DNA from: Leuconostoc holzapfelii | GTDB taxonomy: Bacteria > Bacillota > Bacilli > Lactobacillales > Lactobacillaceae | NCBI RefSeq assembly: GCF_012396485.1 | Contig: NZ_JAAXPO010000002.1 | Location: forward strand, 62,001-126,000 | Reading direction: 5' to 3' | Length of the DNA stretch: 64,000 nucleotides | In this document: positions 9,902 to 23,021 of the stretch, piece after piece | How positions within the stretch are numbered: position 1 is the stretch's first letter | Layout of the letters: each line of letters opens with the position of its first letter | Notes under the pieces: model-generated | Told to the model about the DNA's origin: nothing | What the model saw: only the letters and a program-made list of their open reading frames with translations | Databases searched by the model: none | Translations under genes and position numbers: made by a program

Positions 9902-10022
9902 GATTCACCTCACTAAAACATATTATACCAGCATTTTTTCATCTCTATCGGGCCTGCTTTCATGAAAATATTTGCATAAACCCGTGACATATGTTAAATT
10001 TAACGTGTAGTTTAATATTTAA

Positions 10023-10096
10023 CAATCTGGGGTGCCTTTTGGCTGAGAAACACCCATTGAACCTGATCTGGTTAGTACCAGCGAAGGGAGCATTGC
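10023..10096 (+). ncRNA. TPP riboswitch (thi element)
   Basis: The thi-box core is plain: GGGGTGCC at 10029, GGCTGAGAAACACCC at 10041-10055, GAACCTGATCTGG at 10059-10071 and CCAGCGAAGGGAG at 10078-10090, closed by CAAT/ATTG. It binds thiamine pyrophosphate. A terminator-like hairpin follows at 10116-10150, so high TPP should stop transcription of ykoEDC-tenA. Confidence 0.96.
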
Positions 10097-10115
10097 GCTT
10101 TAGTGTGTCTTGAGC

Positions 10116-22388: not shown

Positions 22389-22477
22389 CAGTCAACCCCA
22401 TCATGCTTTTTTGCTTACAAAGATCATAGCAGAAAAAGGCTAAATGAAAATGAAGAAACGTCATATTATCCATGTAT

Positions 22478-22507
22478 TTGACAAATGATTTATTGACGTG
22501 ATAGACT
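22478..22507 (+). promoter_or_regulatory. Promoter of the SAM-riboswitch transcript
   Basis: TTGACA (22478-22483), 18-base spacer, TAGACT (22502-22507). It places the RNA start shortly before the riboswitch P1 helix. Confidence 0.55.
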
Positions 22508-22526
22508 AACGATAACAATTAAATCA

Positions 22527-22656
22527 CGTGTTATATCGAGAGCTAGTGAGTGATTACACACTTTGACCTAGCAGCAACCTACCTTTTGGCAAGGTGCTCC
22601 ACTGTAATTGGATATACGTCACTTTTAACGTGTTCGTATATCGGGCACGTTTTTTA
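22527..22656 (+). ncRNA. SAM-I family-like riboswitch with expression platform
   Basis: The core fits the S-box: GAGAG after the 5' arm of P1 (TATATC, 22532-22537), a kink-turn-like TGA at 22564-22566, CAGCAACC at 22572-22579 and GGCAAGGTGCT at 22588-22598, with P1 closed by GATATA (22611-22616). GATATACG (22611-22618) can alternatively pair perfectly with CGTATATC (22635-22642). That second pairing excludes the terminator AACGTG/CACGTT (22627-22632 with 22646-22651) plus T-run. This predicts transcription OFF when SAM is bound. The P4 helix is not canonical, so a variant SAM-I or SAM-I/IV class is possible. Confidence 0.8.
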
Positions 22657-22697
22657 TTTGTTTAATCAGTCCTTTGGACGTTAAACAGGAGAACCAC

Positions 22698-23021
22698 ATG
22701 ACCACACTAACCTTAGACGCAGCGCTTCGCCAGCAAGCCTTGACCCAACTCGGGGTTGCACAAGTCTTGACACTGCCTGATGTCACCCCAACTGATCTCG
22801 TGCTGATGGCACAAACCACGCAAGACCCTGCGTTACACGAGCAAATCCAACAAGTAGCTCAGGTACAAGCAGCTGACGCCCTCACCCGTTATCAAACCTT
22901 GCAACACGCTAATGGTCTCATCGCTTATCGTGGCCGTCAGCACTTTAAAGCCCAACTTAGCGAACTCCTGCCCCTCCTCCCCGAAACCCAACAGCTCGTT
23001 ATTCAAAAAATTTGCTATTAA
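22698..23021 (+). CDS. Unrecognised 107-residue helical protein under the SAM-I-like riboswitch
   Basis: The ATG at 22698 has AGGAGA 6 bases upstream. The protein is predicted by eye to be mostly helical and is rich in Gln (about 17), Ala and Leu. It has no signal peptide, membrane segment or cofactor motif, and a single Cys just before the C-terminus. I do not recognise the family. It is the only gene between the riboswitch and tRNA-Glu. A role in methionine or SAM metabolism is inferred only from the leader. Confidence 0.7.
   Translation: MTTLTLDAALRQQALTQLGVAQVLTLPDVTPTDLVLMAQTTQDPALHEQIQQVAQVQAADALTRYQTLQHANGLIAYRGRQHFKAQLSELLPLLPETQQLVIQKICY

What the first reader, a model, noticed from the sequence alone, without database searches (positions are those of the whole stretch)
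22478..23021. SAM-I-like riboswitch controls an unrecognised 107-residue protein
A SAM-binding core, a P1 helix, an 8-bp antiterminator (22611-22618 with 22635-22642) and an intrinsic terminator are all visible, yet the only downstream gene is a small Gln/Ala-rich helical protein with no known domain. Lactobacillales mostly use Met T-boxes (one is present at 285-571), so an S-box here is unusual. The protein may be a new player in SAM or methionine balance, or the leader may be left over from a lost gene.
Basis: partly seen in the sequence, partly recalled or inferred. Interest (0 to 1): 0.82.

Follow-up and report, generated by a model that had tools for sequence, protein, structure and literature searches.

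The report
SAM riboswitch controlling mobile small protein
A Leuconostoc-like lactic acid bacterium carries an RNA switch that very probably senses S-adenosylmethionine and, when it is scarce, turns on a small fast-evolving protein of unknown function; switch and gene travel together between lactic acid bacteria, on chromosomes and plasmids.

Summary
Window 22530-22618 matches the SAM-I riboswitch (RF00162, 40.2 bits, under the 44.4 cut-off; E 7.7e-8 genome-wide). Helices, pseudoknot and terminator are supported by compensatory changes. Predicted logic: OFF switch; without SAM the 8-bp antiterminator dominates. The 107-residue gene is real (dN/dS 0.26-0.30 to two close relatives).

The leader is not a relic: of 397 Lactobacillaceae genomes 18 carry the leader at 116 bits or more, 18 the protein, 17 both; the two exceptions, and one of the 17, are degraded. 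Nor is an S-box rare here: 77 of 397 genomes match RF00162, 42 above cut-off, and this genome has a second one before metK.

New is the target: a mobile, fast-diverging, all-helical small-protein family, also on plasmids and often decayed; related leaders precede other small ORFs, sometimes in tandem. No known domain or convincing fold match. SAM binding and protein function are untested; an accessory role at low SAM fits slightly better than a metabolic one.

The parts
22478..22507 (+). sigma-70-type promoter (TTGACA, 18 nt, TAGACT), just upstream of the leader
   Evidence: consensus match only; similar promoter-like letters upstream of the leader in several relatives by eye
22530..22618 (+). 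SAM-I-type aptamer (no room for a P4 helix)
   Evidence: RF00162 40.2 bits, gathering score 44.4
22532..22537 (+). P1, 5' strand (pairs with 22611-22616)
22542..22572 (+). P2/P2b arm: P2 22542-22546 with 22568-22572, P2b 22549-22552 with 22559-22562
   Evidence: 3 of 5 P2 pairs change on both sides
22554..22558 (+). P2b loop, pseudoknot strand (pairs with 22603-22607)
   Evidence: invariant in the 23 close leaders; across 21 diverse leaders all 21 pair with their own partner, 77 of 420 swapped pairs do
22574..22597 (+). P3 with the GCAACC...GGUGC core
   Evidence: core letters invariant in 23 leaders
22611..22618 (+). P1 3' strand / antiterminator 5' strand (switching strand)
22635..22642 (+). 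antiterminator 3' strand, inside the terminator loop
22627..22660 (+). intrinsic terminator (10-pair stem and U tract)
   Evidence: 3 of 6 counted stem pairs change on both sides
22687..22691 (+). ribosome binding site AGGAG
   Evidence: sequence; similar in most relatives
22698..23021 (+). 107-aa helical protein gene (family A)

Best explanation
A SAM-I-class riboswitch acts as a transcriptional OFF switch for one small gene. With SAM bound, P1 holds strand 22611-22616, so the terminator at 22627-22651 forms and transcription stops. Without SAM, 22611-22618 pairs with 22635-22642 inside the terminator loop and the gene is read. The 107-residue all-helical protein is therefore made when SAM runs low. 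Leader and gene form one inherited and horizontally moving cassette. The protein most likely acts by binding a partner (no catalytic domain is recognisable) as an accessory factor in a low-SAM state. Shown: sequence, conservation of the structure, co-inheritance, selection on the protein, mobility. Inferred: SAM as ligand, direction of switching, action of the protein.
For: Covariance hit. SAM-I core letters (AGA of J1/2, GCAACC, GGUGC, GAU of P1) invariant in 23 leaders; that these are the SAM-contact residues is recalled from published SAM-I structures. Changes on both sides in P2, P3 and terminator pairs. Pseudoknot: 21 of 21 diverse leaders (chosen by me from those read) versus 77 of 420 swapped pairs; 15 helix strings, two of them shifted readings of others. 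Antiterminator of 7 or more bp in 15 of 19 leaders versus 107 of 342 swapped. The SAM-free minimum of -41.0 kcal/mol holds the antiterminator (pair probability 0.955); the aptamer-plus-terminator state is -35.8. Leader and protein together in 17 genomes of 18 and 18; the model R1 was built from many of these leaders, but 8 of 9 genomes found only by the protein profile also have the leader. dN/dS 0.30 and 0.26 to the two nearest relatives. Same cassette on plasmids of Lactococcus sp., Leuconostoc carnosum and, with a shortened gene, Latilactobacillus curvatus.
Against: The Rfam gathering score is not reached. Within the 23 close leaders the antiterminator is 91% paired but shows no compensatory change. 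P4 is absent. For some recent pairs dN/dS is near or above 1 (1.97, 1.18, 1.01; few changes each), so constraint is not uniform. The pair carries broken genes in G017, L. pobuzihii and a second L. salitolerans copy, and the plasmid CP065973 has a leader without the gene. No binding or expression data.
Confidence: 0.72

Rival explanations
1. Accessory/conflict gene: the cassette uses a fall in SAM (for example through phage SAM-degrading enzymes or heavy methylation demand) as an alarm, and the small protein is a defence, restriction-alleviating or plasmid-protecting factor.
For: Cassette on mobilizable plasmids and beside transposase or recombinase genes (by eye); fast divergence, decay and a fusion to a Rep-like N-terminus (by eye). 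Related leaders lie before a PbeA/PbeC pair with a short remnant between (CP065973), before a Sigma70_r4 protein plus PbeA-like helicase (G409) and before a sigma-like, MzaA-matching protein plus helicase next to JetD2 (G306). Leader plus a family B small gene sits behind an operon with a helicase 77.6% identical to the G409 one on a L. plantarum plasmid. One small gene lies beside CRISPR-like repeats (G219, by eye). Phage SAM-degrading enzymes exist (PMC7877911, search listing with start of abstract).
Against: PADLOC scans of 114 neighbour proteins (of 185 ORFs in 20 stretches) and 114 control proteins (of 182 ORFs in 19 stretches of the same genomes) matched 114 and 75 models at E <= 1e-10, with several models per protein, lists capped at 25 and no per-protein counts: no enrichment can be claimed. 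4 of 4 other L. plantarum plasmid copies of the helicase operon that I read (of 8 listed) had no convincing leader (best E 0.77). The two family A proteins scanned match no PADLOC model. The direct leader-operon cases may be lost small genes.
Confidence: 0.3
2. Metabolic role: the protein helps methionine/SAM homeostasis, for example by modulating SAM synthetase or methionine uptake when SAM is low.
For: Control by a SAM-type switch, of the same kind as that of metK in this genome. One of 114 neighbour proteins of S-box small genes is a Cys/Met-metabolism PLP enzyme, and a MetE-like ORF lies beside S-box leaders in an unnamed genus whose S-boxes precede a roughly 50-aa ORF (by eye).
Against: The protein is absent from most relatives (found in 18 of 397 genomes) while metK is general (recalled). 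In the 16 family A loci listed I recognised no methionine gene by eye. Rapid divergence, plasmid carriage, frequent decay.
Confidence: 0.25
3. The leader is a relic of a lost S-box gene and the small ORF is a bystander.
For: Leaders without an intact gene exist: G017, L. pobuzihii, second L. salitolerans copy, CP065973, probably G409; in CP065973 and L. salitolerans the leader itself looks intact.
Against: Co-occurrence in 17 of 18 genomes both ways; dN/dS 0.26-0.30; intact core and covarying terminator; in G017 and L. pobuzihii leader and gene are both damaged.
Confidence: 0.04
4. A SAM-I fold with changed ligand preference.
For: Sub-threshold score, non-metabolic target, missing P4.
Against: The core letters of the SAM site are kept; metK leaders of the family also look P4-less by eye.
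Confidence: 0.07

Closest known systems
SAM-I riboswitch (S box, RF00162)
   Same: Core, P1-P3, P2b loop to J3/4 pseudoknot, P1-linked antiterminator/terminator
   Different: Below the Rfam cut-off, no P4, target is a small unknown protein instead of a methionine or SAM gene
S-box leaders of metK in Lactobacillaceae (34 of 50 leaders read; genera inferred to include Leuconostoc, Weissella, Fructobacillus, Periweissella)
   Same: Same aptamer architecture, P4-less by eye; one in this genome (48.0 bits)
   Different: 27 of the 34 have C instead of G before the CAAC core, with GUGG instead of GUGC opposite (by eye); they control metK
SMK box (SAM-III, RF01767) of lactic acid bacteria
   Same: SAM sensing before metK in other Lactobacillales (PMC6004538, passages)
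   Different: Different RNA fold; no match in this genome up to E 1 (the control Lactococcus matched only below cut-off)
Met T-boxes (RF00230)
   Same: Attenuators of methionine genes in the order (PMC3771891, passages); 20 T-boxes of unspecified amino acids here
   Different: Sense tRNA, not SAM

Membership tests
SAM-I riboswitch RF00162 | Reaches the curated gathering score (44.4 bits) | tested here: not met
   40.2 bits; significant all the same, E 6e-8 and 7.7e-8
SAM-I riboswitch RF00162 | Conserved SAM-site core (J1/2 AGA, GCAACC, GGUGC, P1 GAU) | tested here: met
   invariant in 23 leaders
SAM-I riboswitch RF00162 | P2b loop to J3/4 pseudoknot | tested here: met
   21 of 21 leaders, swapped 77 of 420
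SAM-I riboswitch RF00162 | Kink-turn between P2 and P2b | not tested
   GA letters on both sides seen by eye only
SAM-I riboswitch RF00162 | Binds SAM | not testable with these tools
   needs in-line probing or ITC
SAM-III (SMK box) RF01767 | Covariance match | tested here: not met
   not among the matches up to E 10 in 22400-22720 (one same-clan match was left out of that list unnamed), none in the genome up to E 1
Ribosomal protein uS13 (for the 107-aa protein) | Profile similarity | tested here: not met
   weak hits E 0.0032 and 0.0029; profile-profile comparison probability 2.4%
Any Pfam or NCBIfam family (for the 107-aa protein) | Match at the curated cut-off | tested here: not met
   window protein: best 12.9 bits of 27 and 14.2 of 130; best E over 9 members 0.0046 and 0.0032 (cut-offs shown for the first member only)
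Known folds in PDB | Clear structural match | tested here: inconclusive
   Foldseek no match with E <= 0.001; VIA-align best Z 9.6, rmsd 4.1, 104 aligned, to a designed helical repeat, within the range expected for helical models

The most novel reading that the evidence does not exclude
SAM riboswitches in lactic acid bacteria have been taken over as alarm sensors of mobile cassettes: when SAM collapses (phage SAM-degrading enzyme, exhausted methylation), each cassette releases a fast-evolving small protein that defends the cell or calms restriction systems, and the same switch has been placed before helicase-type defence operons. This would be a metabolite-sensing RNA as the trigger of an immune response.
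Probability: 0.13. Interest if true: 0.88.

Novelty: new variant of a known kind. Interest (0 to 1): 0.6.

Why it matters
[quoted passage not shown] The scans here show S-boxes before metK in several genera of the family and, beside them, S-boxes that control only small, rapidly evolving, horizontally moving proteins. A riboswitch usually hints at the function of its gene; here it says 'needed when SAM is low', which makes the function of an otherwise featureless protein family directly testable, and it may reveal a non-metabolic use of SAM sensing.

Tried and rejected
uS13 paralogue idea: profile hits to ribosomal S13 in PDB (E 0.0029) and one NCBIfam hit (E 0.0032) were not confirmed by profile-profile comparison with 11 S13 sequences (those of 30 fetched loci that my script could parse; probability 2.4%): rejected.

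A common motif ('WAxSxAR'-like) that I saw by eye in many S-box small proteins was not what an unbiased Gibbs search on 36 proteins returned; it found two separate motifs (family A N-terminus; family B 'WL...LP..IR'; score 19.2, 25 restarts, versus null mean 15.4, maximum 15.9 in 20 shuffled sets with 8 restarts each; related sequences raise the real score). So homology of all these small proteins is not claimed. Family A versus family B: hhalign probability 1.1% and 1.7%; but the family A HMM hits the G219 protein at E 0.00036 (search space set to 20), the family B HMM hits the L. delbrueckii family A member at E 2.3e-6 (search space 21), and the predicted helix order is alike by eye: unresolved.

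Defence-island enrichment: not shown. Leader as regular regulator of the Pbe-like operon: not supported by the 4 other L. plantarum plasmids read.

Pairing of upstream CACGTG with the terminator 3' arm (in the minimum-energy fold) is not kept in all relatives by eye and was not made part of the model. Phage records: no match for a family A leader-gene DNA or for a family B protein. The one viral contig that matches the leader pattern shows no further leader letters around it (L110). The neighbouring tRNA as integration site: that tRNA block occurs in several copies in the Leuconostoc genomes searched, so it is not evidence. Foldseek against PDB for both models and against BFVD for the window model gave nothing below E 0.001.

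Full report
WHAT WAS CHECKED. The SAM-I covariance model matches 22530-22618 with 40.2 bits, under the gathering score of 44.4. In the whole genome this match has E 7.7e-8, and the only other match up to E 1, 48.0 bits, lies at C11:53440-53542, before an ORF that reads as SAM synthetase, metK (L044, named by eye). No SAM-III (SMK) match was found (the control Lactococcus rings only below cut-off, so absence is not strict). Twenty T-boxes match, 2 above cut-off.

ANATOMY. Promoter-like 22478-22507; P1 22532-22537/22611-22616; P2 22542-22546/22568-22572; P2b 22549-22552/22559-22562; P3 22574-22597; pseudoknot 22554-22558/22603-22607; antiterminator 22611-22618/22635-22642; terminator 22627-22651. 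There is no room for a P4 helix between the pseudoknot strand and P1.

CONSERVATION. A DNA search with the leader hit 11 of 60 genomes including the window's own; one of these (G040) is a match of 27 query bases only. Within that set the pseudoknot does not vary; across 21 leaders of many types, metK leaders included, it forms in all 21, against 77 of 420 swapped pairs; 15 helix strings were counted, two of them shifted readings of others. The antiterminator is 91% paired in the close set without compensatory change; across 19 diverse leaders it reaches 7 or more bp in 15, against 107 of 342 swapped.

SWITCHING. Without ligand the minimum-energy fold (-41.0 kcal/mol) has the antiterminator, central pair probability 0.955; the state with P1 and terminator is -35.8. 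Hence ligand binding, which the energy model does not contain, would be needed to favour termination: an OFF switch. That the ligand is SAM follows from the kept core and from recalled SAM-I structures; it was not measured.

THE GENE. The protein has relatives in 18 of 397 Lactobacillaceae genomes (profile search). The leader model R1 matches 83 of 397, many of them at metK positions known; 18 genomes have a match of 116 bits or more (the next is at 88; I set this line after seeing the list). Seventeen genomes have both. R1 was built from many of these leaders and the protein profile from 9 proteins picked behind leaders, so the independent part is the 9 further genomes found by the protein profile, of which 8 have the leader. 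Protein only: G009, where the C-terminal part is fused behind an N-terminus that looks like a plasmid Rep protein by eye. In G017, one of the 17, leader and gene are both damaged. A search with the window protein alone over 60 genomes gave 11 hits, among them two weak partial ones without a leader, G019 and G020. Thirteen pairs were tested for dN/dS: window versus L. lactis 0.30 and versus G012 0.26; one pair gave no estimate; the others range from 0.15 to 1.97. Leader identity to the window is 82-95% over the aligned parts (G040 apart) where protein identity is 25-79%. AlphaFold predicts six helices, mean pLDDT 82. No family or clear fold match.

MOBILITY. The cassette occurs on three mobilizable plasmids right behind a pilus/sortase operon (pUCCL630E, pKLC3, and pL1421-1 with a shortened gene), and beside transposase-like ORFs in G016 (by eye). 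A leader pattern scan found 16 stretches in Leuconostoc, Weissella, Periweissella, Fructobacillus, Ligilactobacillus, Liquorilactobacillus, Lactobacillus, Vagococcus and one contig labelled Faecalicatena absiana. The neighbours of the last resemble those in L. delbrueckii, so I suspect a mislabelled or transferred contig. Vagococcus has the leader before a different small ORF.

THE WIDER SET. Of 50 RF00162 leaders read in Lactobacillaceae (30, 20; the scan found matches in 77 genomes, 42 above cut-off), 34 precede metK and 16 do not: 7 precede an ORF of about 48-52 aa in one unnamed genus, 2 family A, 2 a second small-protein family (B), 5 others. R1 also finds leaders before family B proteins, three in tandem in G393 with three different genes (25 leaders read). 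In the order, 37 of 395 genomes match; of 13 such leaders read, 10 precede a small ORF (42-113 aa), 1 metK, and in 2 I saw no intact ORF. One leader stands directly before a sigma-like/helicase operon (G306), one before a Sigma70_r4 protein and PbeA-like helicase with possibly a lost small gene between (G409), and one plasmid leader before PbeA/PbeC with a short remnant between; but 4 of 4 other L. plantarum plasmid copies of the helicase operon that I read lack a convincing leader.

HOW IT MOST LIKELY WORKS. Low SAM lifts termination and the small protein is made. Its sparse distribution, plasmid carriage, divergence and decay are those of an accessory gene; a metabolic role is the main rival, and one Cys/Met-metabolism enzyme among 114 neighbour proteins speaks mildly for it. 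Neither is shown.

LITERATURE. PMC3766115, PMC3771891, PMC6004538 and PMC2965389 were seen as found passages only; PMC7877911 only in a search listing with the start of its abstract. Searches for this leader-gene pair or for S-boxes in Leuconostoc/Weissella returned no paper that I could recognise as describing it, judged from listings and the passages named; subscription journals are not covered.

VERDICT. Real, well conserved, a SAM-I-class switch below the Rfam cut-off, with an unexpected and mobile target.

Noticed in passing
   Followed up: partly
window 10018-10107: TPP riboswitch above the gathering score (70.1 bits).
   Followed up: no
L044 and other metK leaders: 27 of 34 metK S-boxes read have C before the CAAC core and GUGG opposite, a swap of the G-C pair that closes the SAM site in canonical SAM-I (by eye).
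   Followed up: partly
L023-L028, L032: In one unnamed genus canonical S-boxes (58-76 bits) precede only an ORF of about 48-52 aa (MRLxEENFR...).
   Followed up: partly
L184:6776-7996 and L195:4923-6290: Sigma70-like proteins matching MzaA in part, next to about 1100-aa helicases, near S-box leaders; the L195 one also has a DpnI_C-like domain (E 6.2e-6).
   Followed up: partly
L093:7001-9405 (CP065973.1): S-box leader on a Leuconostoc pseudomesenteroides plasmid, then a short remnant, then PbeA/PbeC-like defence genes.
   Followed up: yes
L072 downstream of the small gene (G219:C7): CRISPR-like repeats right behind the S-box small gene (seen in translation).
   Followed up: no
L235, L246: In another family of the order an S-box aptamer ends in the Shine-Dalgarno region of a small ORF, suggesting control of translation instead of termination (by eye).
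   Followed up: no
L065 (G009:C2:98539): C-terminal part of the small protein fused to a plasmid-Rep-like N-terminus (by eye).
   Followed up: no
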